From positions 1 through 34,313 of the forward strand of contig JAVYMA010000002.1 in assembly GCA_038740345.1 (NCBI GenBank): a stretch of DNA of 34,313 bases. The letters run 5' to 3'. Each line of letters begins with the position of its first letter. Position 1 is the stretch's first letter. A program made the translations under genes and the position numbers. The notes under the pieces are model-generated. The model saw nothing but the letters and a program-made list of their open reading frames with translations. It was not told the origin of the DNA and did no database searches. The stretch is from Methanomassiliicoccales archaeon. Lineage in GTDB: Archaea > Thermoplasmatota > Thermoplasmata > Methanomassiliicoccales > UBA472. Below, piece after piece: positions 1-23,616 of the stretch.

Positions 1-2115
1 GGAGACGAGAAAAATGGCCTTGCGCTCAGAAACGCTGTCCACCACATTGCGCAAGAAGCGCACCACACCCTCGAAGCCATTGTTAGAGATCAGATACTGG
101 ATGTCATCGAGCATGATCACTGCCTTCGGCTTTTGCTCCAGGAAGGACTCTATAATGCTCATGATCCTCTCCAGCGAAGGAGGGATGGTCTTTTCCTGAG
201 ACGACTCCCTATCCGTGAGCCATAAAAGCGTTAGGTCCAAATTACCTGCGCGGCTTCGCAATGCTTTGGGATGGCCACGCACAATGCCTAGCGAGGCATA
301 CCCCTCCTTGGCCTTGGTGAGGAGCAGCCTATGCGCGATCTCTGGCTTCACCTCCTCCACCAGGTAGGAGTGGCCATCCGTCAATTCCGAGCGTGGGAGG
401 GCGTGTGGGACCTTGGGAGCCTCGATTCCTAGTATCTCGTGGGCCTTCTCCAAGGTGATCTCGGATTTGAGCAAGGAGGAGAAGGCCACCACTCGATTCA
501 GCCCTCCTTCTAGCTGACGCACGTTATCCCTGAAGACCTCAGCTATTAACGTTAAAACTTCTTTAGGGACGCGCAGCCCCTCGGTTTTTACCCTTCGTTC
601 CAAGATGGCAAGGCGCGTCTCCAGGTCAGGAGGCTGTATGTCTGCTAGCAATCCCGATTCGAACCTGGTGACTAATCTTTCACTGAGGGAGGGAATCTCC
701 TTAGGCGGCCTATCTGAGGTCAGGACCACTTGCCCTCCTCGATCCAGTATGGCGTTGAATATCTGGAAGAGCTCCTCCTGCATTCGCTCTTTGCCTGCCA
801 AGAATTGAGCGTCATCGATTAGGAGAACATCCGCCCGTCGGTAAGCTGCCCGCAGCTGATCCAGCGTCCTGTCTTGGATGGCATTTATTATCTCCGTTTC
901 AAGAGCATCAGTGGGAGCGAAGATCACCAAGGCCTTAGTGGATTTTGAGATGTGATTTCCAATGGCCTGCAGCAGGTGGGTCTTCCCTAGGCCAGAGCGA
1001 GAGTAGATGAACAAGGGGTTATAGGAGCGCCCTGGCGCCTCTGCCACCGCTTTGGCCGCAGCCTCAGCGAAGCGGGAGTTGGGGCCGACCACGAAGTTCT
1101 CAAATGAATAGCGTGGATTCAGGGGACGACCGAAGGAAGGCTTAGTGGAGGTCGGGGCACAGGTGGGGCATGCCCCTGTGACATCCAATGAACTTCCGCA
1201 GCGGGGACATTTGGCTGGACTGGGGGTTTGACTGGTTATTTGTTTATGATACTGCATGATGAGCTCGTACACCCCATCAATCTTCTCATCCACCCTTTTG
1301 CGCTCCAGCTCTTTAAGGATCTGGGCCTTGGGGGTCTCCTCGGGAAGCTCTTCGAAACCCTCGATCTTCCGCCTAAGCGTCTCCAGCTCGGTCTCGATCT
1401 CCAAGACCTTTTCCGGGTCGCGCATCCTGCGCATGAGGGACTCCGCCTCCCTTTCATAACCCTGAGTGTCTAGGAAGCGCAGAACCTCTTCCAGTCCTTG
1501 AAGGCGCTGTATGTTGGCCTCGAAGTAGGGAAGAGAACGTGCCGCTGCTTTGGGGTCTGATAAATAAAGGCGGATGAGATTGCTCACATTGTATCCTTCC
1601 TTAGCCCAACCGTGGATGCGCAAAGCCACCTCGTCACTTCTGCCAGACAATCTCTGCACATCTCCAACCAGGCGGGGATTGGTAAGATTGGAAGGGGGGC
1701 CTAACTCCAGCCTCCCTATCTTGGCATCAGGGTGGCTGCGCTCGATGTCTTGAATGCTTACTCGGCTGTGCAGCGAGATAGAAGATTCAGGCAGAAGAGA
1801 ATCCTCCCATATGAATTCCACGGCCTGCGCTCCTTTGTACAGCCGCTGTGACTTCATCACTCCGCCTTTGCGGAAAGCATATAAGGCCAGAACCGGCTCG
1901 CCGCTATTGAATACCAGGACTCCCTCCGCTCGGTCGATGTTGAACTCGAATTGAAGCTTTATATAACCAGAGAAGGCGTACCTCTTCACATCTTCCAGCA
2001 CCCTTTTTAACACTCCCTCTCCACCACGATATCGATCTACCACCTGACCCTCGGGAATGCCCAGTTCCGCCAGCAAGGATACCCCTTGTAAAAAGGTCTT
2101 GGCCCGATATATCAC
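1..2115 (-). CDS. DnaA-type AAA+ ATPase fused to a DUF835 domain (partial, C-terminus cut)
   Basis: The reading frame is open from a GTG at 2115 to the window edge (705 codons, no stop seen). A stop lies two codons before the GTG and there is no clear Shine-Dalgarno. Residues about 35-110 resemble a small beta-rich sensor-like module, and about 130-300 are charged and helical. A zinc ribbon (CPRC...CPTC) spans residues 303-318. It is followed by a complete DnaA domain III: the entry motif LNPRYSFENFVVGPNSRFAE, Walker A SGLGKTH (K378), Walker B LLIDDAQFLAGKE (D434-D435), sensor 1 VVLTSDRPP, box VII SERLVTRFESG with its arginine finger, and sensor II NVRQLEGGLNRV. From about residue 580 the sequence matches DUF835 (HSYLVEE, MLDDIQYLISNNGFE) where bacterial DnaA would have its helix-turn-helix domain IV. 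Family identities are recognised by motif. The role is unknown: replication control, regulation and signalling are all possible. Whether a DNA-binding domain follows cannot be seen. Confidence 0.88.
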   Translation of the reverse strand, partial: MIYRAKTFLQGVSLLAELGIPEGQVVDRYRGGEGVLKRVLEDVKRYAFSGYIKLQFEFNIDRAEGVLVFNSGEPVLALYAFRKGGVMKSQRLYKGAQAVEFIWEDSLLPESSISLHSRVSIQDIERSHPDAKIGRLELGPPSNLTNPRLVGDVQRLSGRSDEVALRIHGWAKEGYNVSNLIRLYLSDPKAAARSLPYFEANIQRLQGLEEVLRFLDTQGYEREAESLMRRMRDPEKVLEIETELETLRRKIEGFEELPEETPKAQILKELERKRVDEKIDGVYELIMQYHKQITSQTPSPAKCPRCGSSLDVTGACPTCAPTSTKPSFGRPLNPRYSFENFVVGPNSRFAEAAAKAVAEAPGRSYNPLFIYSRSGLGKTHLLQAIGNHISKSTKALVIFAPTDALETEIINAIQDRTLDQLRAAYRRADVLLIDDAQFLAGKERMQEELFQIFNAILDRGGQVVLTSDRPPKEIPSLSERLVTRFESGLLADIQPPDLETRLAILERRVKTEGLRVPKEVLTLIAEVFRDNVRQLEGGLNRVVAFSSLLKSEITLEKAHEILGIEAPKVPHALPRSELTDGHSYLVEEVKPEIAHRLLLTKAKEGYASLGIVRGHPKALRSRAGNLDLTLLWLTDRESSQEKTIPPSLERIMSIIESFLEQKPKAVIMLDDIQYLISNNGFEGVVRFLRNVVDSVSERKAIFLVS

Positions 2116-2229: not shown

Positions 2230-2331
2230 GCCACTGTAGCTCAGCGGCAGGTCGGGCCATTCCCCGGTCCGCTAGAGAGCGACAGTTTCGTAAACTGTAG
2301 GTCGGGGGTTCGAAACCCTCCAGTGGCTCCA
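2230..2331 (+). tRNA. tRNA-Thr(CGU) with D-loop intron, CCA encoded
   Basis: The acceptor stem GCCACTG pairs with CAGTGGC at 2321-2327. The anticodon stem is ACAGT/ACTGT around loop TTCGTAA, giving anticodon CGT (2289-2291), which reads the Thr codon ACG. The T-arm GGGGG-TTCGAAA-CCCTC is intact with one G-U pair. Base 73 is T and CCA is encoded at 2329-2331. The D-stem GCTC (2239-2242) pairs with GAGC (2277-2280), but the loop between them is 34 nt instead of 7-9. The excess folds as an intron, listed separately. The gene starts 114 nt upstream of the divergent DnaA-like gene and precedes thiC, which is convergent to it. Confidence 0.93.
2250..2275 (+). other. Predicted 26-nt tRNA intron in the D-loop (bulge-helix-bulge)
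   Basis: Between the D-stem strands, AGCGG (2243-2247) pairs with CCGCT (2269-2273). A 3-nt bulge CAG (2248-2250) follows on one strand and a 3-nt bulge AGA (2274-2276) on the other. An inner helix GTCGGG/CCCGGT (2251-2256 with 2263-2268, two G-U pairs) closes the 6-nt loop CCATTC. Cleavage after the second base of each bulge, the usual archaeal rule, removes 2250-2275 and leaves the D-loop AGCGGCAA. The central helix is 5 bp rather than the standard 4, so the exact cut could differ by one base. Confidence 0.75.
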
Positions 2332-2359: not shown

Positions 2360-3631
2360 TTAAGTCTTCTTGAGATAGTTTCGAACAATCTTGATTGCAC
2401 AAACGTCGCCGCACATGGAGCATCCTTCCATGTCCTCATTATGACCTCGAGCACGGAGGGCCCGAGCCTTTTCAGGGTCGAGCGCTTGGGAAAACATGCC
2501 TTCCCAATCTAGATTGCGCCTGGCCAAAGCCATGAGGTCATCTTTTTCTCTGCCTCTCCCCCTCGCCAAATCAGCAGCGTGAGCAGCTATCTTAGAGGCT
2601 ATGAGCCCCTCCTTCACATCCTCAGGAGTGGGCAGAGAGAGATGCTCCGCAGGAGTCACATAGCAAAGGAAATCCGCACCAGCATAGGCCGCCATGGCCC
2701 CCCCGATGGCAGCGGTTATGTGATCATATCCTGGAGCGATATCCGTGACCAAAGGACCTAGGACGTAGAAGGGGGCCCCATCGCAGACCGCCTTCTGCAG
2801 GCGCACATTGGCTTCAATCTGGTCCAGAGGGACATGCCCCGGCCCTTCCACCATGGCTTGGACCCCAGCCTCCCGAGCCCGCTTAACCAGTCTACCTAGA
2901 ATGAAGAGCTCGGAGAGCTGTGCTGCATCGCTGGCATCGTGAATGCAGCCAGGCCTAAGTCCGTCCCCAAGAGATAGTGTGAATTGGTGCTCTCTCGCCA
3001 TCTCTAGCAGGTAGTCGAAACGCTGGTAAAGAGGATTCTCCAAATCGTGGTGTAGTATCCATGCTACCAGGAACGCCCCTCCCCGCGAAACTACGTCCGT
3101 TAGCCTTCCGGATCTCCTCAACCAGGAAACGCTCTCTCGGGTGATTCCACAATGGACCGTCATAAAGTCCACGCCATCCTTGGCATGCAGCTCTATGCCC
3201 CGAAAGATATCATCCTCATCCATGTCCACCACTGCGCCGTGCCTTGCCAGGCGCAATCCTGTCTGATATATAGGAACGGTCCCTACAGGGATATCAACCA
3301 CCTTCAGTATGGATCTCCTCATTTCGTCAATATCTCCTCCAGTGCTAAGATCCATAATGGTGTCAGCGCCATAGCGCAGAGATATCCTGACCTTCTCCAT
3401 CTCCTCCTCTGGAACGCAATGATCCCTAGACGTGCCTACGTTTACGTTCACTTTCACCCTCAAACCTTCTCCTATACCGCATGGCTTGGGGGCATGCCGT
3501 GGGTTTCGTGGTATGACGATCCTTCCTTTAAGAACCCCTCGGCGCACCGTTTCGAGTTCGACCCCTTCCTGCTCAGCCACCTCTTTTATCTCTCTCGACA
3601 TTTCGGTGCAAAGTCTCTCCATCAATGTCAT
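2360..3631 (-). CDS. thiC: Phosphomethylpyrimidine synthase ThiC
   Basis: ThiC is the radical-SAM enzyme that rearranges aminoimidazole ribotide into the pyrimidine moiety of thiamine. The protein has about 423 residues, the usual archaeal length. It contains the ThiC signatures VNVNVGTS, IMDLSTGGD, TVHCGIT, SLGDGLRPG, MVEGPGHVP and LGPLVTDIAPGYDHI. A C-terminal cysteine cluster, CSMCGDVC, for the auxiliary [4Fe-4S] cluster sits near residues 403-410. I chose the ATG at 3631 because AGGGG lies a few bases ahead of it. An in-frame GTG at 3670 would add 13 residues without a comparable site. No other thiamine genes are nearby. It diverges from gyrB across about 280 nt carrying a TATA box on each strand. 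I see no TPP riboswitch in the leader. Confidence 0.96.
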   Translation of the reverse strand: MTLMERLCTEMSREIKEVAEQEGVELETVRRGVLKGRIVIPRNPRHAPKPCGIGEGLRVKVNVNVGTSRDHCVPEEEMEKVRISLRYGADTIMDLSTGGDIDEMRRSILKVVDIPVGTVPIYQTGLRLARHGAVVDMDEDDIFRGIELHAKDGVDFMTVHCGITRESVSWLRRSGRLTDVVSRGGAFLVAWILHHDLENPLYQRFDYLLEMAREHQFTLSLGDGLRPGCIHDASDAAQLSELFILGRLVKRAREAGVQAMVEGPGHVPLDQIEANVRLQKAVCDGAPFYVLGPLVTDIAPGYDHITAAIGGAMAAYAGADFLCYVTPAEHLSLPTPEDVKEGLIASKIAAHAADLARGRGREKDDLMALARRNLDWEGMFSQALDPEKARALRARGHNEDMEGCSMCGDVCAIKIVRNYLKKT

Positions 3632-3761
3632 TCGTTCCCCTAGCCTGCAGCGTCCTATTTGAAAGTTCACCTAGAGAGCGGAACTCGTCTTGAAGACTAA
3701 AGGTAATCCGAGGTGAAAGGTGCTCGAACCTCTTCCCTAAAGCTCATGTTCAAAGCGCTTT

Positions 3762-3878: not shown

Positions 3879-5807
<1,929 letters not shown>

Positions 5808-5816
5808 GTGGTCGAA

Positions 5817-8459
5817 ATGGAAGGTGCAGAAGTTAAAGAGCCGCCCGCCCTGGAGAGGAAAGCGGTGGTTAACCGCCCTATCGAGAAGGAGATGGAGAAG
5901 TGCTACATTGATTATGCCATGAGCGTGATCGTCTCCCGAGCTCTACCAGATGTCAGGGACGGATTGAAACCGGTCCATCGCCGCATCCTTTACTCCATGT
6001 ACGATTCGGGCATCACCTCAGGGAAACCTTATAAAAAGAGCGCCAGGGTGGTGGGTAACGTTCTGGGTCAATTCCATCCTCATGGAGATATGGCAGTGTA
6101 TGACGCCTTGGTGCGCCTGGCCCAACCTTTCTCGATGAGATATGTGTTGGTGGATGGGCAAGGGAATTTTGGGTCCATCGACGGTGATGCCGCTGCGGCT
6201 ATGCGTTACACTGAATGCCGCTTGAACAAGCTCGCAGAGGAGATGTTGGTGGACCTGGAGAAGGACACCGTGGATTGGGTAGATAATTTCGACAGCAGCC
6301 TCAAAGAGCCATCAGTTCTTCCTGCCAAGCTTCCTAACCTGCTGATAAATGGCACATCAGGAATCGCCGTGGGCATGGCGACCAACATCCCTCCTCATAA
6401 CCTGAGGGAGGTAGTGGATGCTCTCACTGCCCTTATCGACAGGCCTGATATGGAAGTAAATGAGCTAATGCAGTACATCAAAGGTCCTGACTTCCCTACT
6501 GGTGGCATAATCTACGGGATGAATGGAATATTGGAGGCGTATTCCACTGGTAAAGGCCGTCTTAAGGTCAGAGCCAAGACCAAGATTGAGGAGAAGAATG
6601 GTAAAAAGAGCATAGTTGTGACCGAGATACCTTATCAGGTGAACAAGTCCACTCTCCTAGAGGGCATTGCCCAGCTAATCAAGGACAAGAAGGTGGAAGG
6701 CATCACCGATCTAAGGGACGAGAGCGACCGTGACGGTATGCGCATAGTCATGGACCTGCGCCGCGATGCGATGGAGGAGATAGTCCTCAATCAGCTATTC
6801 CAACACTCTGCGCTAGAGGTCACTTTTGGGGTCATCAACCTCGCCCTGGTGAACAATGAACCCAAGGTATTGACTCTGAAGGAGACGCTGCAACACCATC
6901 TGAATTACCGCAAGGAAGTAGTTACACGGCGCACTCGCTATGAGTTAAAGGAGGCGCAGAAGCGCCATCACATCCTTCAGGGGCTTATAAAGGCAGTTGA
7001 TTCCTTGGATGAGACCATAGCTATTATCCGTTCCGCCCAGTCCACTGAAGAGGCCAGAGACGGGCTCATGGCCCGCTTTCAGCTCGATGAGGAACAGGCC
7101 AAGGCCATCTTGGAAATGCGATTGCAGAAGCTAACAGGGCTGGAGTTGGAGGCATTACATAAAGAATTCACCGACGTAGTTGAATTAATGCGGAAGCTGG
7201 AGGAGATATTGGCCTCAGAGCAGAAGATAATGAGCATCATACGCTCCGAGCTGCTTGAGCTTAAGGAGAAGTATGGTGATGACAGGAGAACGGAAATAAT
7301 TCCATACGCGCAGGATCTGGACGAGGAAGATCTGATTCCCATCGAGGACATGGTGGTCATGATCACTTCCGATGGCTATGTAAAGCGCATTCCCTTATCC
7401 ACGTACAAACAGCAGAGGAGAGGTGGTATGGGGCTCATGGGCATGGAGACCAAGGAGGAGGATCACGTCACTGACCTCTTCGTTTCCAGCACTCATGACG
7501 ATATCATGTTCTTCACTAACAAGGGGAAGATGTTCCTGCTCAAGACTTATAAAATTCCTGTAGGGCAGAGGCATTCTAAGGGAAAGCCGATTGTCAATCT
7601 GCTTCCTCATTTGGAGGAAGGAGAGAAGGTAATTGACAAGGCGCCGGTGAAAAAGTTCTCCGAAGACCTCTTTGTGGTATTTGCCACCAAGCAAGGTATG
7701 ATCAAGAAGACGCGCTTAGATGCTTATAAGAATGTGCGCTCAAATGGTATTATTGCATTGGGCCTGAACGAAGGCGATGAACTCATAGATACCAAAGTAA
7801 CAGATGATAACAAGGAAGTCATCCTGGCCACAAGGGATGGTCGTGCCATCCGCTTTGACCTGAAATATGACCCGGAAAAAGGAACTGGGGTTAGGCCGAT
7901 GGGTCGTCCTGCCACAGGGGTCATTGGCATACGCCTGCGAGAAGGTGATGAAGTGGTTAGCATGGCCCTGGTAACACCTGAGTCAAGGCTGCTCACGGTG
8001 ACTGAGAAAGGTTATGGCAAGGTCTCTGTGGTGGGTAAACCCTCCTCCGTAGAGGAAGAGGACGAGGATGAAGGAGAAGAGGAGGAGACAGAGGAGGAGC
8101 AGGAGCGGGATACCTTCCGCAAGACCCATCGCGGAGGAAAAGGGATCAAGGCCATCAGGGTAACTGAGAAGAACGGTAAAGTAGTGGCTGTGCTGGCCGT
8201 TTCTGAGGAAGATGACATCTTAATCGCCTCCGACCGTGGAAACGTCATACGCACAAGCGTATCCGAATTCCGCGTCACGGGAAGGGTCACCATGGGCGTC
8301 CGGGCCAAACGCTTGGAGGAAGGAGAGAAGGTCATAGCTGTAGAGAGGCTTGTAGGCGAACATGAGAGGGCGACTGTGGCAGCTACGGATGCCAGAGAGG
8401 ATGACAGCATGTTTCCCACCGATACCATTTCGGAGAGCGAAGACACCAATGGTGAATGA
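5817..8459 (+). CDS. gyrA: DNA gyrase subunit A
   Basis: This is the DNA cleavage/rejoining subunit of gyrase. The catalytic tyrosine is Y131 in AMRYTECRL. The N-terminal core has [18 protein letters not shown] and the QFHPHGD region. The C-terminal DNA-wrapping pinwheel carries a GyrA-box QRRGGMG near residues 533-539, in which the usual Lys of QRRGGKG is Met. An acidic stretch of about 20 Glu/Asp-rich residues interrupts the pinwheel near residue 745, and the C-terminus is also acidic. The start is the ATG at 5817: AGGTGG lies 6 nt before it and overlaps the gyrB stop, implying translational coupling. A GTG directly after the gyrB stop (5808) is an in-frame alternative. About 880 residues is a normal length. 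Confidence 0.97.
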
Positions 8460-8513: not shown

Positions 8514-8554
8514 GCTAGACCTGATTGAATTCTCATCCATCAGCGGTGCGCATC

Positions 8555-9259
8555 ATGTTCAAGAACTCGATACCAGGCCTCGAGAAGGTATTTCGCACTG
8601 ACATCGAGGCTCCCAAAGTGGTTCTAGTCACTGGACCTCCCGGCTCTATGAAGACAAGCTTCTGCTATTCAGTAATGTCCTCCTACCTAGAGAGAACAAA
8701 AGAGTTCGGACTCTATGTGACTCTGGAGGAGAGCGGGGAGTCGCACTTGCGCAATATGCGCTCATTAGGCATGAAGCTCTCCCCTAATCTGGAAATATCA
8801 GACTTCACTGACTTAAGGGAGCTTGATGAGATCGTGGAGGTAGATAATCCCACGGATTATGTACAGTTCGTGGAACAAATGCTCACGTATTATAAGAAGA
8901 AACATGGGGACAAGTTCACCGTCTTCACCTTGGATTCGTTAGGGGCCTTATACTCTTTGATGGAAAACTCTACAGGCATGAGGAAGCGCATGTTCTATTT
9001 CTTTAAGGCCTTGAGGGACCTGAACCTTATTTCCTTCATTGTGATGGAGCGCGCGCCTGGCTCTCCCTCAGATTTATTAGGAAATGAGGGCTTTCTGGTA
9101 GATGGTATCATTGAGATGGGACTCGATCGCTCGAAGGGGAAGATGGCGCGGTATATGAGAGTGGAGAAGATGCGCGCCTGCGAGCACTCCATGGAAAGGC
9201 ACACCGTTGAGGTGAGTCCTGGTGCAGGCATGACCATACTTGGTCCCACAATGACTTAG
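8555..9259 (+). CDS. KaiC-like / RecA-superfamily single-domain ATPase
   Basis: A 234-residue protein comprising a single KaiC-type RecA fold. Walker A is GPPGSMKTS (residues 27-35), where Met replaces the usual Gly before the Lys, a variant common in archaeal KaiC-like proteins. A catalytic-type glutamate pair follows in YVTLEES, and the Walker B strand is VFTLDSLGALYSLM. The C-terminal half has the KaiC pattern of a strand ending in MERAPGS, followed by VDGIIEMGLDR and YMRVEKMR. The start at 8555 agrees with GGTG about 8 nt upstream; an upstream TTG (8525) is less likely. Such proteins often act in signalling or regulation, with substrate unknown. It precedes a coiled-coil zinc-ribbon gene by 119 nt, a pairing echoed by the fusion protein at 25428-27371. 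Confidence 0.85.
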   Translation: MFKNSIPGLEKVFRTDIEAPKVVLVTGPPGSMKTSFCYSVMSSYLERTKEFGLYVTLEESGESHLRNMRSLGMKLSPNLEISDFTDLRELDEIVEVDNPTDYVQFVEQMLTYYKKKHGDKFTVFTLDSLGALYSLMENSTGMRKRMFYFFKALRDLNLISFIVMERAPGSPSDLLGNEGFLVDGIIEMGLDRSKGKMARYMRVEKMRACEHSMERHTVEVSPGAGMTILGPTMT

Positions 9260-9378: not shown

Positions 9379-10470
9379 CTGTCCGGCGACAGTGTTCCGA
9401 TCTGGCAGGTAATCGAGGAATTCAAAGAGAAGATAAAGGCGCAGGAAGCGGAGATAAAGAAGCGCAAGGACGAGCTCGACGCGGTGGAGGCGACACTGCG
9501 CCAACGCGCCGATTCCCTGGACAAACGGGAGGAAAAGCTCATATTACGTGAGAAAGAGGTCGAAGCCAGAGATGCCGAACTCAAGCCGAGGGAGATGAAT
9601 GTCGCCAAGAAAGAGAAGGATTTGATTATGCTGGAAACTTCTTTGCGAGAGCTCCAGGATGAGATCAATATGGCCCGCATCACGATTGAGAAAAGGGATA
9701 AGGAACTTACGGAAAAGGAAGCTGAATTACTTCGCCTTTCAGAGTTATCCTCTCAATACGAAGCAGCGATTAAGGAATATGCAGCCAAGTATCAAGCTTT
9801 AGAAGAGAAGATGCTCTCCGAGGAGAGGAATTTGGCCAAAATCCTCGATGAATTATCGAGCCGGCGCGAAGAGATGCTGGTTAAGATAAAGGCGCTGCAA
9901 GAGCAAGAGGATCTGCTGGCAGAGAGCAAGCGCTTGGTGATGGAGGAGCAGAGAAGATTCGTGGATTGGGAGAGGAAGCTGAACGATAGGGAGGCAGAGC
10001 TAGCAAGAAGGGAGAGGACATTGGAGAAAGCTTCAAGCATCGCTAAAATGGAAGCCTCCTCGGAACCTCAACCTATCTGGCAGCAACCGACTTCATCAGA
10101 AAAGACTGGGGATAAGGCAGAAGTTGTAAACCAAACCGCAGCTGTAAAGGAAGTTGAAACATCTATAGTGGAGAGCGAGGAATCGGGCCTAGCCGAGATT
10201 TTCTGCCCTGAATGCCGCACCATCGTCAGCGCTTCCGCGGATTCTTGTTATGCTTGCGGGGCTGACCTGAAGAATCCAAAGCCCAAGGAACCCACAGTAT
10301 CAGAGCCAAAGGCACAGCCCGTGCAGGAAAAGGCAGAGGAGAAGGTCGAACAGAAAGAGGAGCTAAAGCCTTTGGAGCCCAAGCCAGAGGAAAAGCGGAG
10401 CGAGGAGGAGCGCAAGGAGACCGAGGGGAAGAAATCGGTGTCCATTCGCAAAATCATCAAACGCAAGTGA
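9379..10470 (+). CDS. Long coiled-coil protein with zinc ribbon and charged tail; probable CTG start
   Basis: The protein has about 363 residues. Residues 10-210 are an almost unbroken coiled coil rich in Glu, Lys, Arg and Leu. A zinc ribbon (CPEC...CYAC) lies near residues 275-293. A Pro/Glu/Lys-rich tail ends in a basic patch (IRKIIKRK). No ATG, GTG or TTG occurs in frame between the stop at 9313 and a GTG at 9484, yet the coiled coil clearly begins earlier. A perfect GGAGGGG (9367-9373) stands 5 nt before an in-frame CTG at 9379, so I chose CTG. No signal peptide or membrane segment is seen, so it is probably cytoplasmic. Function is unknown. Its position directly after a KaiC-like ATPase suggests a partner or adaptor role. 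Confidence 0.75.
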   Translation: MSGDSVPIWQVIEEFKEKIKAQEAEIKKRKDELDAVEATLRQRADSLDKREEKLILREKEVEARDAELKPREMNVAKKEKDLIMLETSLRELQDEINMARITIEKRDKELTEKEAELLRLSELSSQYEAAIKEYAAKYQALEEKMLSEERNLAKILDELSSRREEMLVKIKALQEQEDLLAESKRLVMEEQRRFVDWERKLNDREAELARRERTLEKASSIAKMEASSEPQPIWQQPTSSEKTGDKAEVVNQTAAVKEVETSIVESEESGLAEIFCPECRTIVSASADSCYACGADLKNPKPKEPTVSEPKAQPVQEKAEEKVEQKEELKPLEPKPEEKRSEEERKETEGKKSVSIRKIIKRK

Positions 10471-10659: not shown

Positions 10660-13600
10660 ATGAGCAGTTCCATTGAGAATAGGATAATTAGCTTTGCAAT
10701 TGTATGGTGTCTAGTGACTTCTCTGTTCGCCGGACTTCTAATAGTCGTCCCTGAAGAGAGTGAGGCTGCATTGCCCTCCATTCTGCCGAATGGGGATGTG
10801 ATCATTGGCTCAGATTATGAGTTCAGTACTTGGCCGATAAATCCTAATCTTAACGGCGCTGAGATTAAGATGAGAGGAAATCTTACCATTCGATCCGGCG
10901 GTATTGTAACAATAAATGATGGTACGCTGAGCTTTGCCCAAGATATTGGTATGGATCGCATCCCTGGGACCGCTGACGATCATGTGTACAAATTAATAAT
11001 AGAAGACGGCGGTCGACTTATCCTGAATCGTGCCACCCTTACCACCCATCTAGATACCATCTTCAACTATCCTAGCCTGGGTGTGCTGGTTCGCAACGGT
11101 GGGGTTCTTCAAGCCACCGACTCCGTGCTCAAATTCCCAGGTCATATTGTGGTGGATTCGTCTCAATTAGTATTGACGGATAGCGTGGTGACGGGACACT
11201 TATCAACCGACATAAGCAAATATTGTATCCCAAGCTATTTCCCATCCGATTTTTTCGATGACTCGGCTGTGATTCTATCGGTCTCTAGCACCTGCACTTT
11301 GATGAACTCGAGAGTAGAGCGCATCTATGAAAATTCGAGCGTGCCTCTCCCGCCAAGCACGTATAATCACAACTATCCCTTCGCCTCTGATGATGCTACG
11401 AGGAATCTCGTGCAGTACACCTTATCCAGAAATGTTAATTCCTTTACCGCGGCCAATACTGCCATGGGCCCTTTGGTGAATATAACCATGGATGACAGCA
11501 GGTATGTGATGGTAGGGCCTGGTCAGACCCTTTCTTTGGGGTCTGTGGCCATCGATGGATTGGTATTCCCCGCGTCAACAAGCTATTCCATCACCATGCA
11601 TGTTAAATATAAGACCGATTTAGGCTATGACGGAACATCATACTTCTTATGGAGCTATGAGAACGGTGCCTTAACGACCACAACCATCCAGCCTCGTGAC
11701 ACACACCTCTCATATGATCCTAATGTGAACATCGAGGCCGTGGAATCATTCGCTATGCCAGCTATGTCCTCCGCCGATTTGAGGAATCTAAACATCAGTT
11801 TCTCCAACAACGCTGTCAGTTCGCCGGGCTTCGTTTATATCAACAGGGTATGGTTCGACATCACCTTCTCTCTACCTACTTATCGCAACATCACCATGGC
11901 AGGTTCGAGCAGCCTTATTGCCCTGGATACTTATCTGGACGTTGATTTCAACAACGATCGCATAGCTCACAATCAGCTGAATGTGAGAGATGCGTCAAAT
12001 GCCTATTTGTATGGTGTGTGGGGGGATGTTGAAGAAGAGGACATCGAATATGAGCGCGTACCTGCTTACTTTATCTCCTCAGGCACAACTTCTGCTTATC
12101 CTATTTCTAAAGGAACTCTTGACAACACTACCTCCTCCTTGGCCACACTCAGGAGCGTGGATGGAGTATACTATGATGTGGCAGCCAATCAGGTAATGGC
12201 ACTTGAGAACTTCAACGTAGGAGACATAAGCGGACCGTTATCAGCTGTCACCTTGACTGTATCTGTGAGAGTTGCAGCTGGCTATGTCGTTGATCAATAT
12301 GTAAAATGGGGGACTTCATGGAGTTTGTTGTATAATACTAGCATTAGACCATCTTCAACTACTTTAACAACGTATAATTTTGATTTATATTCGGCAGGAA
12401 TCACAGACGTTTCGAAGCTGAATAACTTGAAGATTTCGTTTACAAACACCAGAGCACAATTGGTACAGTTTGACCGCATTGCGATAACAGTTGAAACTGG
12501 ACCTGCCATATACGTTTACCGCTGGGCGGATGTGAACGCGGTAGATGAGCAGCAGCTTCCAATAAGTGGTGCATTCGTGAATGCCACTTTGTTGAGCAAT
12601 GGTGGACAAGCCTATTATTATACCCCATCTGGAGTGTCCCCTGTACCGCCCTCTGAAGTGCTCAGCTATTTGAATAGAAATACTGAGAACTACAAGATAA
12701 CGAATGAGTCGGGCTCCGTAATGCTGCCTCTACTTTCAGATATTCTGACCCGAACTGACCAGCTACCAAATCTGGTACCCATCCATGGTTACAATTTATT
12801 CATTAATTATACGAATGTCAGCTCCGTGTTCTATTCAGGCCAGGTAGCGATCTCATTCGACTCTTATCCCGCGATCGGAAAAGAAAATCAAACAAGGATA
12901 ATTGAGTTCACCATGCCTGATTTGTACTTGGATAGGCCAGACCTGCAGATCAATTCCATGTCTGTAGCACCTTCCACAATCTTCGTGGATGACATCGCCA
13001 CAATCTCGGTTCAAGTGCGGAACAACGGTCTCACAGGTGCTCGGAATGTTGTGGTAAACTTAACTGATTCGCTAAGCACTTGGACAGGTGAGCAGACGGT
13101 GGGCATAATTGGACCGGGGGCCACGGTGGAAGTGCAGTTCTCTTGGGTGGCTACGCCAGCAGGTATGCACACGATTACCGCCCGCGTGGATCCGAAGAAT
13201 GTGGTTGCGGAAAGTAGCGAGGTGAACAATGAGAGGTCATTATCTTTCACCGTCTTGGCGAATCTGCCCGAGCTTTCAGTTACATCCACCGACATCTCTT
13301 TCACTCCGCAGCCAGCCTTTTCCAACAGTCCTGTGACCACGACGGTAGTGGTATCTAATGCATTGGGCAGAGCCGACGCCAAGGACGTCACTGTATCTTT
13401 CTACATCGGAGATCCCAGGACAAGCGGTCAGTTAATAGGAACGAATATAATTAACGTCACCAAAGGTGCAGCCAACACTACAAATTTCGTCTGGACCCCG
13501 ACTGAAATAGGAACATACGACATTTATGTGCAAGTGAATGCTGGACAATCTCCAAAAGAATACTCTTATGCCAATAACCTGGCGAGCAGAGCGATAACCG

Positions 13601-16600
13601 TTGATTTATCTCTTATGGACACAGATTTGGTAGTGGACGACTCAAATGTAGTGACATTCTCAGGAGCTTCGTTTAGTCAGCGTGGCCGCGTGATAGTAAT
13701 GGAGCAAGGAACTCTTATCATCCGGTCGGCCACATTCACTATGTTCGAGGATTATGATGGCCAATTCCAGATATACGTTATGGACCAAGGAAGATTGATA
13801 ATCGAGGGAGCCACCCTGGCTACGACCAAATCGATTTGGATGTATGTGATGGAGGATGCGATCGTATGGGTCAACGATTCCTTGCTCTCTGATGGGTTGA
13901 AGATTAAACTGGACGGTTATTCGCAGTTCAGCATTGAGAGGTCAACTGTTCATGCTGAACTGGTCGCCCCGACTTCATCGAATTCGATACTCAGGGCATC
14001 TTCTACTACTTTCACCAAATCGCTATCCTCGTTCGGTGGCAAAGCCATCGCCTATTTGACAAGCGTTTCCACTCCTTCTTTGGTCGCCAAGGAGAACGCA
14101 CTCATCTACCACTATCGCAACATAGAGGTGACGGTGGTAGACCTGGCCAACAATAGGATAGCTGGCGCTGAGGTGGTATTGCGTTACTATGTCAATAGGA
14201 GTGATGTCTCAGCCGCGGTGACAAACGTGGCGGGTGCGCTAAGGTTCGCAGCTCTGTGCGATGTGATAACCGCGACTGGTAGCATGTATCATGGCAGGTA
14301 TGCCTTGAATGCTTCATACGCTTTCATGGCACGGACATATTACGCATCTGAGGCTGCAGTTTCCCTGTCTCCCTATTCTGCTCCCTTGTCTGTGAGCGAT
14401 GCTAAAATAACTCTCGTCATTCAAGCGATTATACCGATAAGCGAGTGGGACATCATAGTAGATGATAATAATATAGTGGAATTGGAAGGAACCACCTTCA
14501 ACCATCGTGGCCGGGTTATCGTTATGGATAACGGGGCGCTGAGGATCAGAAATGGTGGTTTAGCCATAGATCAAGACAGCAATTATCAATTCCAGATATT
14601 CGTCCAGGACAACGGGCGATTAGAACTGTACAAGGCCACCTTGAGCTCCGACTTCAATATTTGGCTGTATGCATCAGGGAATGCTGTAGTACGCATCGAG
14701 GAATCCACGGTTCATTCCTCAGTAATTATGAGACTTGACGGCTTATCCAAAGTGTACCTCCTGAACTCCACCATTGGCTCCGGCATCTCAGCTCCCTCAA
14801 GCTCATCTGCAAGAGTGTGGGCCTGGAATACTACTTTCCTAACTTCGTGGAACGCCTTCGGTGGTAATGCCGTAGCTTATCTTGTGAGCGTAAGAGTCCC
14901 AGCCTTGAGACCGATTGAGGGCGCACTTGTGCTCCACTATAGATGGGTAAAAGCGACAGTTTTAGATGGTAATAATTATGCCATTCCCAATGCCGTGGTC
15001 CAGATCCGCTTCTATGTCAATGGTACCCTATTCAGCTCGGTACGCGCATCAGCGGACGGCACGGTATTGTTCGCTGCGCTTTGCGATCGAATAGACGCCA
15101 ACGGAGCAAACTACCTGGGTAACTATAGGTTGAATGCCACTTATTGGTTCCAAGGCACACCATACGAATCCAGCGTGGTTCCAGTTTCCCTAGCACCATA
15201 TGCAGAGCCATTATCAGCGTTGAGCTATGTCAAATCGATTAGCATCCCTTCGGCTCTACCGGATTTGGATCCGCCAATCTTCGTTTCCAACTCGCAGCCA
15301 TATCGCAACGAGAATGTTACCATAACCACTCATGTAACCAATGTGGGAGTAGTCGATGCTAACAATGTGATGGTACGCTTCAAAGATGGCACCAGTGTCA
15401 TTTCCGATATTATAGTACCAAAGATATCGCCTGGGGAGACCGTTATCGTGAGTGTTGTTTGGAGGGCGAGTTATCCACTAGGTTTGCATAACATCTCGGT
15501 GGTCATCGATCCCTTGAATTTGATAAAAGAGCTCACCGTGGATGACAATACAAATTGGACCTTGGTCGAGGTGAGAGGAGTAGTAGACTTATACATTAGC
15601 GAGGTAGATGTTACTGTGACTCCAGCATCGCCTACTACTAACTCTTCAGCATCCATAACTGTGGTTGTGCACAATAGTGGTGACATCGCCGCAAGCAATG
15701 TCAATGTATCCTTCACCGACGTGATGCCGGGCGGTCAGCAAGTGCTAATAGGATACGCGTTGATTCCTACCGTCCCGGGCCTTGGGGGTACTGGAGCAGC
15801 GAGTGTTTCCTGGGTGCCAACAATACCGGGGAATCATGTCCTAATTATAAGGGTGAATGTGGGCATACCCCCCATTCCAGAGCAGATAACCTCTAACAAC
15901 AACGTGTCCTATCCTGTCATAGTAAGGAACTACGCTGACCTAACTCCTAGCAGCATAACCTTCAGGCCTCTAACTGCTATCTACGTGGGGAATCAGGTCT
16001 TTGTCGATGCAGCCATAGCCAATATCGGTCAGACGGCTGCGGCCAATGTCGTGGTCAACTTCTGGGAGGGTTCCATCGGGACAGGCAGGCTATTCGATAC
16101 CAAGACCATTAGCTCTGTGGCATCTGGTCAGACAGTCACTGTTACCGGATCCTGGATAGTACAACCCATAGCTGGTGCCAAGTTCCAGACACGCACCATT
16201 TGGGTGGATGTGAACCCAGCCCGCACCGTGATCGAGACCAATTACAACAACAACCGCCTCTCACAGGGCGTGATTGTGGTCGATAACCGTCCTGATCTCA
16301 TGTTCGTGGGTACCTTGAATTTCACCTCTGGAAGCAGCGAGGTTACCGAAGCCGTATTGGGAGAGACAATAGTGATGAGAGTCTCTCTAAAGAACGATGG
16401 CTTCACTAATGCTATGGGTGTAAAGATCAGGTTTGAGGCGGGAGACTCTGATGGCTACTATATGACTCTCTTCATAGTCTCGCGCGATGTGAGAGCCAAT
16501 GAGACGATAAGAATAGAACAGTCCTGGATAGTGAACACCACCACATCGGGGAACTATACCATCCGAGCGACAGTGGATTACAATAGTCAGGTCAATGAAA

Positions 16601-17709
16601 CCAATGAGGGCAATAACATCCTGACTAAAACGTTCAGAGTGAATCCGCCTGTGCCTCAGATCAGCATTAGCGTGCCTCTTGGAGAGCAAAAAGTAGACTC
16701 CAATATCATCGTCTCGGGAGTGGTAACCAATTCGCGTACAGGGGCGCCATTGCCCAACCAAGCGGTGGTGCTGACCATAATGACCACTGGCCTGCCTAGG
16801 CCGATAATTGAGAATGTGACAGTTTACACCGGCCCATCTGGCGTATTCCAGGGCACTCTGCATATACCAGCCAATGTGAAAGAGGGCACTTATGTGGCTT
16901 CAGCGAGTGTAACCATTGACAATAAGACCGTCTCCGTGATGTCCGCAGGCTTCCAGATCGTAAGAGGCCCTTCGGAGACTTCAGTGCCCTTCTGGGTATG
17001 GTTGTTGATAATTGCCTTGGTGGTCCTGATAATAGTCGCATTCTCCTTCAAGCTCTACCGCGGCCTGGGGAGAATGGTGGAATGCGGTGAGTGCGGTGCC
17101 CTCATACCGGAAAGCTCAAAGCGTTGTCCCAAGTGTGGCGTGGAGTTCGAGACGGGCACAGCCAAGTGCAGCAATTGTGGTGCCTGGATCCCCGTCTCCT
17201 CTTCGGAGTGCCCTGAGTGCGGTGTGAAATTCGTATCCGAGCCTTTGCCCGAAGAGGAAAGTGATTACGTGCGCAAGATGAGGGAACAATATGAAGCCTA
17301 CGTTGCGCCATTCCGAGAGCAGGGCAAACAGGCACTGGGGAAGAAATACAGTGAGGCGAAGTTCCAGGAATGGTGGAAGAAGCAGCCTTCGTACATTTCC
17401 TTCGAGAAGTGGCTTTCTCAGGAAGAGCAGAAGAGAAAAGCTGCTGGATCAGCTTTCCCTTGCCCCATCTGTGGTACTTTGAACCCTAAGGGTTCGAATA
17501 TCTGCAGCAAATGCGGCACCGTGTTCGACAAGACTATGATGAGCGAAGCGCCTACTACCGCATCCACGGAGCAATCCTCGGAGCCCTCAAAGCCTGCTCG
17601 TCGGATAGTTCGCAGAGCTGCAGAAAAGAAAACCATCACCAAAAAGCCTGAGGAGGCGGGGCAGCCATCCGAAGAACAACAGCAACCAGAGGAACAGAAA
17701 GCTCAGTGA
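10660..17709 (+). CDS. Giant membrane-anchored surface protein with beta-solenoid-like repeats, six CARDB domains and cytoplasmic zinc ribbons
   Basis: 2349 residues. A signal sequence or N-terminal anchor covers residues 8-32. The region 40-750 is rich in beta strands, with short repeats typical of right-handed beta-helices (GGxLxIxNxxL) and two related beta-sandwich-like modules (about 294-403 and 521-613). CARDB adhesion-type domains begin near 758, 869, 1533, 1642, 1758 and 1877. Each shows the pattern (P/V)DL...V.N.G...A.NV...G...V...NN. Between the second and third lie two tandem units of about 270 residues (986-1257, 1263-1527). An Ig-like domain (about 1996-2100) leads to one transmembrane helix (about 2108-2133). 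The tail carries three four-cysteine zinc ribbons (near 2142, 2170 and 2268) and a Glu/Pro/Lys end. Many N-x-S/T sequons suggest glycosylation outside. GGTGGGTG precedes the ATG. Function is unknown: an S-layer-like, adhesive or envelope-sensing role is plausible. Confidence 0.9.
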   Translation: MSSSIENRIISFAIVWCLVTSLFAGLLIVVPEESEAALPSILPNGDVIIGSDYEFSTWPINPNLNGAEIKMRGNLTIRSGGIVTINDGTLSFAQDIGMDRIPGTADDHVYKLIIEDGGRLILNRATLTTHLDTIFNYPSLGVLVRNGGVLQATDSVLKFPGHIVVDSSQLVLTDSVVTGHLSTDISKYCIPSYFPSDFFDDSAVILSVSSTCTLMNSRVERIYENSSVPLPPSTYNHNYPFASDDATRNLVQYTLSRNVNSFTAANTAMGPLVNITMDDSRYVMVGPGQTLSLGSVAIDGLVFPASTSYSITMHVKYKTDLGYDGTSYFLWSYENGALTTTTIQPRDTHLSYDPNVNIEAVESFAMPAMSSADLRNLNISFSNNAVSSPGFVYINRVWFDITFSLPTYRNITMAGSSSLIALDTYLDVDFNNDRIAHNQLNVRDASNAYLYGVWGDVEEEDIEYERVPAYFISSGTTSAYPISKGTLDNTTSSLATLRSVDGVYYDVAANQVMALENFNVGDISGPLSAVTLTVSVRVAAGYVVDQYVKWGTSWSLLYNTSIRPSSTTLTTYNFDLYSAGITDVSKLNNLKISFTNTRAQLVQFDRIAITVETGPAIYVYRWADVNAVDEQQLPISGAFVNATLLSNGGQAYYYTPSGVSPVPPSEVLSYLNRNTENYKITNESGSVMLPLLSDILTRTDQLPNLVPIHGYNLFINYTNVSSVFYSGQVAISFDSYPAIGKENQTRIIEFTMPDLYLDRPDLQINSMSVAPSTIFVDDIATISVQVRNNGLTGARNVVVNLTDSLSTWTGEQTVGIIGPGATVEVQFSWVATPAGMHTITARVDPKNVVAESSEVNNERSLSFTVLANLPELSVTSTDISFTPQPAFSNSPVTTTVVVSNALGRADAKDVTVSFYIGDPRTSGQLIGTNIINVTKGAANTTNFVWTPTEIGTYDIYVQVNAGQSPKEYSYANNLASRAITVDLSLMDTDLVVDDSNVVTFSGASFSQRGRVIVMEQGTLIIRSATFTMFEDYDGQFQIYVMDQGRLIIEGATLATTKSIWMYVMEDAIVWVNDSLLSDGLKIKLDGYSQFSIERSTVHAELVAPTSSNSILRASSTTFTKSLSSFGGKAIAYLTSVSTPSLVAKENALIYHYRNIEVTVVDLANNRIAGAEVVLRYYVNRSDVSAAVTNVAGALRFAALCDVITATGSMYHGRYALNASYAFMARTYYASEAAVSLSPYSAPLSVSDAKITLVIQAIIPISEWDIIVDDNNIVELEGTTFNHRGRVIVMDNGALRIRNGGLAIDQDSNYQFQIFVQDNGRLELYKATLSSDFNIWLYASGNAVVRIEESTVHSSVIMRLDGLSKVYLLNSTIGSGISAPSSSSARVWAWNTTFLTSWNAFGGNAVAYLVSVRVPALRPIEGALVLHYRWVKATVLDGNNYAIPNAVVQIRFYVNGTLFSSVRASADGTVLFAALCDRIDANGANYLGNYRLNATYWFQGTPYESSVVPVSLAPYAEPLSALSYVKSISIPSALPDLDPPIFVSNSQPYRNENVTITTHVTNVGVVDANNVMVRFKDGTSVISDIIVPKISPGETVIVSVVWRASYPLGLHNISVVIDPLNLIKELTVDDNTNWTLVEVRGVVDLYISEVDVTVTPASPTTNSSASITVVVHNSGDIAASNVNVSFTDVMPGGQQVLIGYALIPTVPGLGGTGAASVSWVPTIPGNHVLIIRVNVGIPPIPEQITSNNNVSYPVIVRNYADLTPSSITFRPLTAIYVGNQVFVDAAIANIGQTAAANVVVNFWEGSIGTGRLFDTKTISSVASGQTVTVTGSWIVQPIAGAKFQTRTIWVDVNPARTVIETNYNNNRLSQGVIVVDNRPDLMFVGTLNFTSGSSEVTEAVLGETIVMRVSLKNDGFTNAMGVKIRFEAGDSDGYYMTLFIVSRDVRANETIRIEQSWIVNTTTSGNYTIRATVDYNSQVNETNEGNNILTKTFRVNPPVPQISISVPLGEQKVDSNIIVSGVVTNSRTGAPLPNQAVVLTIMTTGLPRPIIENVTVYTGPSGVFQGTLHIPANVKEGTYVASASVTIDNKTVSVMSAGFQIVRGPSETSVPFWVWLLIIALVVLIIVAFSFKLYRGLGRMVECGECGALIPESSKRCPKCGVEFETGTAKCSNCGAWIPVSSSECPECGVKFVSEPLPEEESDYVRKMREQYEAYVAPFREQGKQALGKKYSEAKFQEWWKKQPSYISFEKWLSQEEQKRKAAGSAFPCPICGTLNPKGSNICSKCGTVFDKTMMSEAPTTASTEQSSEPSKPARRIVRRAAEKKTITKKPEEAGQPSEEQQQPEEQKAQ
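13616..15240 (+). repeat. Tandem intragenic duplication within the giant protein (two units of about 800 bp)
   Basis: The protein segments encoded by about 13616-14430 and 14446-15240 align end to end. Shared landmarks are the V-DD-N-V entry, RGRVIVM, QFQI(Y/F)V, DQG/DNGRL, FGG(K/N)A(I/V)AYL, LHYR-like and AALCD. The copies have diverged at the DNA level, so the duplication is old. Confidence 0.85.
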
Positions 17710-18217: not shown

Positions 18218-19891
18218 TTAAGGGAGTTCTTGCATCTTCTCCCGAATCTCCTTGGCAACACGTTCTGGATCCTTATAATAGCCGGAGATGACTTTTGCCA
18301 CCTGGCGATAATTATCGAATCCAGCCTTCTTCATGTATTCTAATATGTCCACTCGCCGTTTGATCTCTCGCTCCATCTCCCTCGGCGACCAATTCCGTAT
18401 GGTACGAACTTTCTCATAAACATAAGAATGACCTGAATAGTTGAAGGTGTCATCCGCTGGGTTCCAGGTGTAAACAGAATTGGTTATCAGCTCTCCTGTC
18501 TCAGGGTCCATGCCGACGATTTCCGTGAGCGATTTCACGCGTCTGGTCATCTTCGTTCCCACCTTCACTTGCGCTTGCAGCAAAACGATGTCTAGGGCGG
18601 TCATGAGTGCGCGCGGGAGATTGATGGGGTCATTCTCCATTCTATGGACCATGGCCTGCACATCCTCAGCATGGAAGGTGGAATAAGCAGTCTTTCCTGT
18701 GGCCATGGCTTGGAATACCACATAGGCCTCTTTACCTCTGACCTCCCCTACCATCAGATACTGGGGCCTTTGGCGAAGGGCAGCAGTAAGCAGCTCGAAC
18801 ATATCAATCGTGCCAGCAGAAGAGGATTTCCTACCCCCGAACCCCTCTCTGGTGAGTGAAGGTATCCAGTTCTCATGGGGAAGGTTCAGTTCTCGAGTAT
18901 CCTCTATGCTGACGATCTTCATTTGGGGAGGGATGAACAGAAGGACAGCGTTTAGGGTGGTGGTCTTACCTGAAGCCGTACCTCCACAGACCAGCATGGA
19001 GCTGCCGTATTCTGTGGCCGTCCAGAGATAAGCCATCATATCCGTGCTCATGGTCTTGAACTTGAGCAGGTCGATGGGGGTAAAGGGGTTCTCTTTGAAT
19101 CGTCGGATGGTGAAGCTCGATCCTCTCTTGGTCACATGCTTACCAAGTGTGGCATTCAATCTAGATCCATCCGGTATGGTGGCGTCCAACAGTGGATCTG
19201 CCACCGAGATGTGCTTGCCACACTTCTGCGCTAACCAGACCACATAAGAGTCTAGGTCCAGCTCGTTTTCGAACTTGACATTAGAGCGTATAGATCCATA
19301 TTTCCTATGGAATATGTAAAGGGGGATGCCGACACCATCACAGGAACAATCCTCCACGTTCGGGTCAATCATCATAACGTCGATGACCCCATAGCCTATG
19401 AAATCGCGGCGAAGGTAATAGAAGATCCTTTCTTTCGAAATTGGGTTGAGATTGATATTCATGCTTCGCATGAGCTGGTCGGTAGCCTCCCGCAATATCG
19501 ACTCCTTCCCCTTCACATCCTCACTCTGAGCCAAATTCAACGTCATTACCAGTGCTTGCTTTAAAATGGTAAGAAGCTCTTTCTCGTCTTCTGTCAGTTG
19601 TGGCTCTATCACCTCATACGTGTATTCAGAACTTACATTGTCATAGAGGATTCTCACATAAGTGTAAGGAGGAGTAATCTGAGCCACTTCCACTTCTTCC
19701 ACATTAGGATCCTCGATATGGGGGATCTCGGTTATAGACAACGACTCTCCTGTAGAGGTCTTTGCAGGCATGCGCACCCTGATAGGGCGATTCCTGATGC
19801 GGAGCAAGAGTTTCTGATAGCCAGATAGAAGGTCCACTCCACCACGTTCCTGAACTGCTCTTGCCCCTTGCTCTTCGCTGCTTGCCGCCAT
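18218..19891 (-). CDS. Type II/IV secretion-type ATPase (second copy), Tad/archaellum-like
   Basis: A hexameric motor ATPase of the GspE/TadA/FlaI superfamily that powers pilus assembly. 557 residues. After an N-terminal regulatory region come the YxxRRDFIGYGVID segment, Walker A GGTASGKTTT near residues 302-310, the aspartate box VSIEDTRELNLPHENW, Walker B YLMVGEVRGKE, and the histidine box STFHAED. The start ATG at 19891 has GGAGG about 8 nt upstream, overlapping the end of the TadC-like gene, which indicates coupling. It is clearly paralogous to the ATPase at 21850-23601, sharing both order and motifs along the whole length. It is the last pilus gene of the operon. I infer that it drives either the opposite movement or a second subunit set. 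Confidence 0.92.
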   Translation of the reverse strand: MAASSEEQGARAVQERGGVDLLSGYQKLLLRIRNRPIRVRMPAKTSTGESLSITEIPHIEDPNVEEVEVAQITPPYTYVRILYDNVSSEYTYEVIEPQLTEDEKELLTILKQALVMTLNLAQSEDVKGKESILREATDQLMRSMNINLNPISKERIFYYLRRDFIGYGVIDVMMIDPNVEDCSCDGVGIPLYIFHRKYGSIRSNVKFENELDLDSYVVWLAQKCGKHISVADPLLDATIPDGSRLNATLGKHVTKRGSSFTIRRFKENPFTPIDLLKFKTMSTDMMAYLWTATEYGSSMLVCGGTASGKTTTLNAVLLFIPPQMKIVSIEDTRELNLPHENWIPSLTREGFGGRKSSSAGTIDMFELLTAALRQRPQYLMVGEVRGKEAYVVFQAMATGKTAYSTFHAEDVQAMVHRMENDPINLPRALMTALDIVLLQAQVKVGTKMTRRVKSLTEIVGMDPETGELITNSVYTWNPADDTFNYSGHSYVYEKVRTIRNWSPREMEREIKRRVDILEYMKKAGFDNYRQVAKVISGYYKDPERVAKEIREKMQELP

Positions 19892-19895
19892 CTTC

Positions 19896-20810: not shown

Positions 20811-20819
20811 GGCACCACC

Positions 20820-23601: not shown

Positions 23602-23616
23602 ATGCACACCTTCGCC

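What the first reader, a model, noticed from the sequence alone, without database searches (positions are those of the whole stretch)
1..2115. DnaA-type replication-initiator ATPase in an archaeal chromosome, fused to DUF835
The AAA+ domain is not merely RecA/Orc-like. It has the bacterial DnaA entry motif, Walker A GLGKTH, LLIDDAQFLAGKE, TSDRPP, the arginine-finger box SERLVTRFESG and the sensor II NVRQLEGGLNRV, plus the extra helix region that defines DnaA initiator AAA+ proteins. Archaea normally initiate with Orc1/Cdc6. Domain I and, within the window, domain IV are missing. In their place are an N-terminal sensor-like module, a zinc ribbon and a C-terminal DUF835 domain, itself typical of archaeal signalling-type proteins. 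This suggests a bacterial ATPase captured and rewired for a new task, such as an assembly switch, a replication or transcription regulator, or a defence or signalling ATPase.
Basis: partly seen in the sequence, partly recalled or inferred. Interest (0 to 1): 0.85.

Follow-up and report, generated by a model that had tools for sequence, protein, structure and literature searches.

The report
Bacterial DnaA motor in archaeal signalling protein
In one phylum of archaea, the ATP-driven core of the bacterial DNA-replication starter DnaA has been built into a different, signalling-type protein that travels with a fixed partner gene, so a well-known bacterial motor appears to have been reused for a new and still unknown job.

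Summary
Confirmed. The minus-strand ORF (2115 to 1, cut by the contig end) has a true DnaA domain III: PF00308 E 3e-59, TM-score 0.94 to B. subtilis DnaA. It lies between an N-terminal module plus coil and zinc ribbon, and a C-terminal DUF835, an inactive FlaH/KaiC fold. The missing tail is on another contig of the same genome; no DnaA domain IV follows. The genome is a Methanomassiliicoccales archaeon with its own Orc1/Cdc6. About 104 of 300 class genomes carry the AAA+ domain; 297 have Cdc6_C and only one chimera-like MAG has DnaA domain IV. So it is not the initiator.

New here: (1) a convergent zinc-ribbon/helical gene (F1) follows in 38 of 38 testable loci and is absent from 17 genomes lacking the protein. 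(2) In three sister genera the same syntenic gene keeps N-module and DUF835 but has lost the whole AAA+ part. (3) Elsewhere in the phylum the modules are split into two adjacent genes with a degenerate AAA+. (4) ATP-switch residues are conserved; ssDNA-contact residues are not.

Most likely an ATP-dependent assembly switch in a signalling complex; output unknown. New variant of a known kind.

The parts
1..2115 (-). DnaA-AAA+/DUF835 protein (here F0), 705 residues shown; about 734 in full, tail on contig C45
1696..2064 (-). N-module, residues 18-140: predicted b-a-b-b-b-b-a-b fold; no Pfam family passes cut-off; DUF2226 profile lands on it weakly in two relatives
1231..1671 (-). Helical/coiled-coil segment, residues 149-295; a ~100-aa helical repeat of this kind occurs about 8 times in f39/f48 relatives
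1156..1221 (-). C4 zinc ribbon (CPRC...CPTC), residues 299-320; absent in some lineages
421..1128 (-). DnaA domain III (AAA+), residues 330-565
976..1002 (-). Walker A SRSGLGKTH, residues 372-380
811..825 (-). Walker B LLIDD, residues 431-435
664..666 (-). Arginine finger R484 in SERLVTRFESG
517..519 (-). Sensor II arginine R533
1..378 (-). DUF835, residues 580-705: RecA-like FlaH/KaiC fold without a P-loop; last ~29 residues lie beyond the contig end
2230..2331 (+). tRNA gene between F0 and thiC (context; anticodon not resolved by ARAGORN)
2360..3670 (-). thiC, conserved flank
3903..5807 (+). gyrB (bacterial-type gyrase), conserved flank in part of the class
5808..8459 (+). gyrA, conserved flank
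8525..9259 (+). KaiC-like ATPase (F7); in other lineages it lies next to F1
9484..10470 (+). Coiled-coil plus zinc-ribbon protein (F10), travels with F7

Best explanation
The protein is an ATP-controlled assembly switch in a Thermoplasmatota-specific signalling complex, not a replication initiator. Shown: a DnaA domain III with its ATP-binding and inter-subunit residues intact sits between an N-module plus helical rod and an inactive KaiC-type domain (DUF835), and the gene keeps a fixed convergent partner, F1 (zinc ribbon plus helical). Inferred: ATP binding lets the AAA+ domains join through the arginine finger into an oligomer or filament, as in DnaA. The rod and zinc ribbon, together with F1, form the scaffold. 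DUF835 acts as a non-hydrolysing partner or sensor, perhaps paired with the active KaiC-like ATPase F7, and the N-module receives or passes on the signal. Hydrolysis would disassemble it. The output is not known.
For: AAA+ is DnaA domain III by profile, sequence and fold (TMt 0.94-0.95). Walker A, Walker B, arginine finger and sensor II are kept in nearly all fused forms. No P-loop in DUF835; best fold matches are FlaH and KaiC, and a survey lists DUF835 as inactivated KaiC (PMC5847659). F1 is adjacent and convergent in 38 of 38 loci with room; in 50 chosen genomes F1 was next to F0 in 26, on another contig in 2, and absent in the 17 genomes lacking F0. N-module plus DUF835 persist at the same locus with F1 after loss of the AAA+ part, so they are the constant core. 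A split two-gene form in another part of the phylum ties the same modules together. No domain IV, Orc1/Cdc6 present.
Against: No expression, interaction or biochemical data. The arginine finger is lysine in family f24, and the AAA+ is degenerate in the split form, so ATP-driven assembly cannot hold in every lineage. The gyrBA and orc1 linkage in part of the class would also fit a chromosome-related role. The pairing of DUF835 with F7 is inferred from fold and gene order only.
Confidence: 0.55

Rival explanations
1. It is a regulator of replication or chromosome topology: a DnaA-like AAA+ that interacts with Orc1, the origin or gyrase, comparable in role to Hda or to the non-initiator Orc1-2.
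For: Domain III is of the DnaA lineage and aligns through the initiator-specific region without a gap. The gene is beside gyrBA in 11 of 20 neighbourhoods and lies 42-50 kb from orc1 in all 11 genomes of the syntenic group where both are seen on one contig. A shallow GC-skew minimum lies near orc1 in G069. The ssDNA-contact residues K442/R444 are kept in most Methanomassiliicoccales.
Against: Those 11 genomes share synteny, so this is one observation, not eleven. In other lineages the gene sits beside phosphoglycerate kinase and KaiC-like genes, and G163 has 158 kb to orc1. ssDNA-contact positions are not conserved outside the order. Three genera lost the AAA+ without losing the gene.
Confidence: 0.25
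2. It is a second replication initiator that acts like bacterial DnaA.
For: DnaA domain III with all ATP-switch motifs.
Against: No DnaA-box-binding domain IV in 299 of 300 class genomes; the one exception looks like a chimeric MAG. Cdc6_C present in 297 of 300. Whole families, one of them in the same order, live without it. AAA+ lost or degenerate in several lineages.
Confidence: 0.04
3. It is an anti-phage defence or mobile-element ATPase.
For: AAA+ plus sensor-like domains is a common defence layout (general knowledge); weak PADLOC hits to mad8 and LmuB at 4e-6 to 2e-3 over short or coiled stretches.
Against: Stable synteny with housekeeping genes and host-family branching; viral contigs hold only the AAA+ part and its flank at 40% identity or less.
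Confidence: 0.03
4. Assembly chimera or bacterial contamination.
For: The ORF lies at a contig edge.
Against: Independent MAGs and single-contig chromosomes carry it at the same place; GC is close to that of neighbouring genes; the tail and F1 are found on another contig of the same genome.
Confidence: 0.01

Closest known systems
Bacterial DnaA (TIGR00362), domain III
   Same: AAA+ domain: 52-53% identity to Firmicutes DnaA, same motifs, TM-score 0.94-0.95 to B. subtilis and T. maritima domain III
   Different: No domain I, no domain IV; different partner domains; host has Orc1/Cdc6; AAA+ is lost in some orthologues
Hda (DnaA inactivator)
   Same: A DnaA-type AAA+ domain without domain IV, in a non-initiator role
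   Different: 25% identity only; Hda has a clamp-binding N-terminus (general knowledge), not the N-module and DUF835
DUF835 (inactivated KaiC) signalling proteins such as REC-DUF835
   Same: Same C-terminal domain; REC-DUF835 is also in this genome
   Different: None reported with a DnaA AAA+ domain in the papers searched
Archaeal Orc1/Cdc6
   Same: AAA+ initiator superfamily in the widest sense
   Different: Profile scores are marginal; the genome has separate Orc1/Cdc6

Membership tests
Bacterial DnaA initiator | DnaA-type AAA+ domain III | tested here: met
   PF00308 E 3e-59; fold TMt 0.94
Bacterial DnaA initiator | Domain IV helix-turn-helix that binds DnaA boxes (PF08299) | tested here: not met
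   absent in the recovered C-terminus, in the own genome and in 299 of 300 class genomes
Bacterial DnaA initiator | Domain I (helicase loading, self-interaction) | tested here: not met
   N-terminus holds a different module; no DnaA N-terminal family is hit
Bacterial DnaA initiator | ATP-switch residues (Walker A/B, arginine finger, sensor II) | tested here: met
   Walker A first glycine is serine here
Bacterial DnaA initiator | ssDNA-contact residues of domain III (Aquifex K188, R190, T191) | tested here: inconclusive
   K and R kept in most Methanomassiliicoccales, lost in f8 and f27; residue roles from memory, numbering checked against the 1l8q chain
Bacterial DnaA initiator | Opens the origin | not testable with these tools
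   needs biochemistry or genetics
Hda | Curated Hda model score (194.8 bits) | tested here: not met
   104.8 bits
IstB / DnaC / DnaI helicase loaders | Best profile match among AAA+ families | tested here: not met
   IstB 49 bits of 200, DnaC 22 of 357, against DnaA 318
Orc1/Cdc6 | Cdc6 lid and winged helix | tested here: not met
   no such domain in P0001; found in the separate Orc1 protein
DUF835 (inactive KaiC) family | PF05763 above cut-off, RecA-like fold, no P-loop | tested here: met
   64 bits against 33.1; FlaH/KaiC fold; no GxxxxGK[ST]
DUF2226 (N-module) | PF09987 score above cut-off | tested here: not met
   the best hit in G002 and one hit in G111 fall on the N-module, E 0.005 and 0.049, below cut-off

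The most novel reading that the evidence does not exclude
A whole archaeal phylum carries an unrecognised multi-gene ATP-switch system (F0, F1, F7, F10) in which a captured DnaA motor assembles a pseudo-KaiC signalling scaffold, in part of the class encoded near the chromosome origin, linking cell state to DNA topology or replication without being an initiator.
Probability: 0.2. Interest if true: 0.85.

Novelty: new variant of a known kind. Interest (0 to 1): 0.64.

Why it matters
DnaA is treated as the hallmark of bacterial replication. Here its motor domain persists across much of one archaeal phylum, separated from origin recognition, beside normal Orc1/Cdc6. It gives a natural experiment on what the DnaA ATP switch does on its own: intact, arginine-finger-less, degenerate and deleted versions exist, some at the same syntenic place. 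It also gives the obscure DUF835 pseudo-KaiC domain a defined, testable partner gene.

Tried and rejected
Literature: no paper in the library joins DUF835 and DnaA, and in the archaeal-replication and archaeal-gyrase papers opened no archaeal DnaA gene was found by word search. The N-module has no Pfam family at cut-off; DUF4388, which I suspected by eye, gave nothing there; DUF2226 gave only weak but well-placed hits. The AAA+ tree does not settle one capture or more; long branches (Hda, IstB, Deferribacter, f18, f25, f29) disturb it and were left out in part. GC skew around orc1 was weak. Defence was tested with PADLOC and viral contigs and dropped.

Full report
WHAT IS THERE. The ORF is on the minus strand, 2115 down to 1, and runs off the contig, because the window begins at base 1 of contig C2. 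Its 705 visible residues hold, in order: an N-module (18-140), a helical coil (149-295), a C4 zinc ribbon (299-320), a DnaA domain III AAA+ (330-565) and DUF835 (580-705). The AlphaFold2 model has mean pLDDT 83.8, but pTM is only 0.41, so the domains are reliable and their arrangement is not. The missing C-terminus was found: contig C45 of the same genome begins with the DUF835 tail and a stop codon, followed by the convergent gene F1. The contigs do not overlap, so about five residues are still unseen. The whole protein is about 734 residues and ends after DUF835, as do complete relatives.

IS THE AAA+ DOMAIN REALLY DnaA. Yes. PF00308 scores 3e-59. TIGR00362 gives 318 bits, against 105 for Hda, 49 for IstB, 22 for DnaC and 13 for Orc1/Cdc6. 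The best solved relatives are B. subtilis, T. maritima and A. aeolicus DnaA. Foldseek gives TMt 0.94 at rmsd 1.5 to B. subtilis domain III. Identity is 53% to Paenibacillus and B. subtilis DnaA and 25% to E. coli Hda. In trees the archaeal domains fall among bacterial DnaA and branch by archaeal family. One archaeal clade is not rejected (p-AU 0.344); with the f39/f48 relatives added it is borderline (p-AU 0.067). An old capture with mostly vertical descent fits, but more than one capture is not excluded and the trees are unrooted.

IS THE CONTIG ARCHAEAL. Yes. The nearest named relatives are Methanomassiliicoccales MAGs (76% and 69% over the N-terminal part). All 44 loci found in the genome collection with the N-terminal module come from records titled as archaea, mostly Thermoplasmata, Euryarchaeota or Methanomassiliicoccales. 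The genome has two Cdc6_C proteins, one of them checked as an Orc1/Cdc6 with Cdc6 lid and winged helix. GC content of the ORF is close to that of neighbouring genes.

DISTRIBUTION. In 300 genomes of the class, 135 matched the 575-residue query; by my count of the list about 104 did so at E 1e-39 or better, a level that in these lists goes with the AAA+ domain. Cdc6_C was found in 297 of 300. Bac_DnaA_C was found in one, a 5.2 Mb single-contig MAG that looks chimeric. In the members of family f2 of the same order that were tested, neither the DnaA protein, nor the N-module, nor F1 was found.

THE GENE NEIGHBOURHOOD. Across 20 neighbourhoods there are two main arrangements. In Methanomassiliicoccales and families f8/f24 the order is F10, KaiC-like F7, gyrA, gyrB, thiC, F0, F1, as far as the contigs reach. 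In families such as f19 and f27 and the soil EA MAGs it is phosphoglycerate kinase, F0, F1, F7, F10. F1 is a zinc-ribbon plus helical protein transcribed towards F0. It is present in 38 of 38 named loci with at least 700 bases of room after the AAA+ domain; some of these MAGs are the same genomes as in the 20 neighbourhoods. In 50 chosen genomes F1 was next to F0 in 26, on a different contig in 2, and absent in all 17 genomes without F0; a few further genomes gave only weak matches, mostly to ~1500-residue helical-repeat proteins. In the own genome F1 also follows F0. F0 and F1 therefore behave as an obligate pair.

THE AAA+ DOMAIN IS A REMOVABLE PART. In genera g2, g3 and g5 of the window's own family, the gene between thiC and F1 encodes only 335-356 residues, an N-module followed by DUF835. 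The coil, zinc ribbon and AAA+ are gone. Other genera of the family, other families of the order and other families of the class have the full form, so loss is the simplest reading. In families f43 and f46 elsewhere in the phylum (probably Poseidoniia; not verified) the same modules are split: one ORF with N-module and DUF835, and a second that overlaps its end, by 4 nt in four of six loci, with a degenerate DnaA domain. It lacks the arginine finger and, in three of four f43 members, the Walker A lysine. In f39/f48 three long proteins have an N-module, about eight helical repeats and the AAA+, without DUF835; the f48 AAA+ is 65% identical to Bacillus DnaA. Fusion in one branch and adjacent genes in another is good evidence that the modules work together.

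RESIDUES. Walker A GK[TS], Walker B DD, arginine finger and sensor II are kept in nearly all fused forms of the class. Exceptions are lysine for the arginine finger in f24, and changes in the single members of f11, f18 and f29 examined. The positions that contact ssDNA in A. aeolicus DnaA (K188, R190, T191; roles from memory, numbering checked on the 1l8q chain) are K, R and M here, but mostly S/N at the first in f8, and D/E at the second in f27. Selection keeps the ATP switch and not the DNA contact.

DUF835. The short form was modelled (pLDDT 81.8). Its best PDB matches are FlaH and KaiC, at E 2.7e-6 and 2.6e-5. DUF835 has no P-loop. An archaeal two-component survey labels DUF835 as inactivated KaiC (PMC5847659). 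An active KaiC-family gene, F7, is a recurrent neighbour.

ORIGIN LINKAGE. In eleven genomes of the syntenic group where both genes are seen on one contig, F0 (full or short form) lies 42-50 kb from an orc1 gene (positions). This is one inherited arrangement, not eleven tests. In G163, of family f23, the distance is 158 kb. In G069 the cumulative GC skew has a shallow local minimum near orc1. I treat this as a lead only.

MECHANISM. Shown: a DnaA motor with conserved switch residues, an inactive KaiC-like domain, a constant N-module/DUF835 core in most lineages, and an obligate neighbour gene. Inferred: ATP-dependent assembly of a scaffold through the AAA+ domains, with F1 and perhaps F7 as partners. 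Unknown: the signal and the output. The main rival is a regulator of replication or DNA topology. Initiation, defence and contamination are disfavoured by the tests above.

NOVELTY. No paper in the library was found that describes this protein. The library holds open-licence papers only, so a subscription paper could exist. The domain is a known one; the architecture, the gene set and the pattern of losses appear to be new.

Noticed in passing
L145:999-5192 (own genome, contig C17): A 1397-aa class I tRNA synthetase (I/L/M/V type) with helix-hairpin-helix, zinc ribbon and a C-terminal DUF835: a pseudo-KaiC domain fused to a tRNA synthetase.
   Followed up: partly
window 18218-23607, minus strand: Two archaellum-like FlaI ATPases and two FlaJ-like membrane proteins in tandem, resembling a type IV pilus-like or secretion system; scores are below the curated archaellum cut-offs.
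   Followed up: no
window 10660-17709: A 2349-aa protein with repeated CARDB domains and C-terminal zinc ribbons, directly after F7 and F10; large ORFs sit at the same place in some other lineages.
   Followed up: no
L146:3533-7858 and similar ~1450-1600 aa ORFs: Giant helical proteins present in many Thermoplasmata genomes; they match the helical parts of F1, and some match that of F0; the one scanned has no Pfam hit.
   Followed up: partly
window 2230-2331: tRNA gene with extra bases that ARAGORN cannot assign (four-base anticodon gtcc); probably an intron-bearing archaeal tRNA.
   Followed up: no
G303 and G310 (family f37): Dozens of copies of the helical repeat in very long proteins, plus N-module proteins, in genomes whose listed matches include no DnaA AAA+.
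   Followed up: no
L164, G000:C11:51743-53176: Own-genome member (1443-aa ORF) of the giant helical protein family.
   Followed up: no
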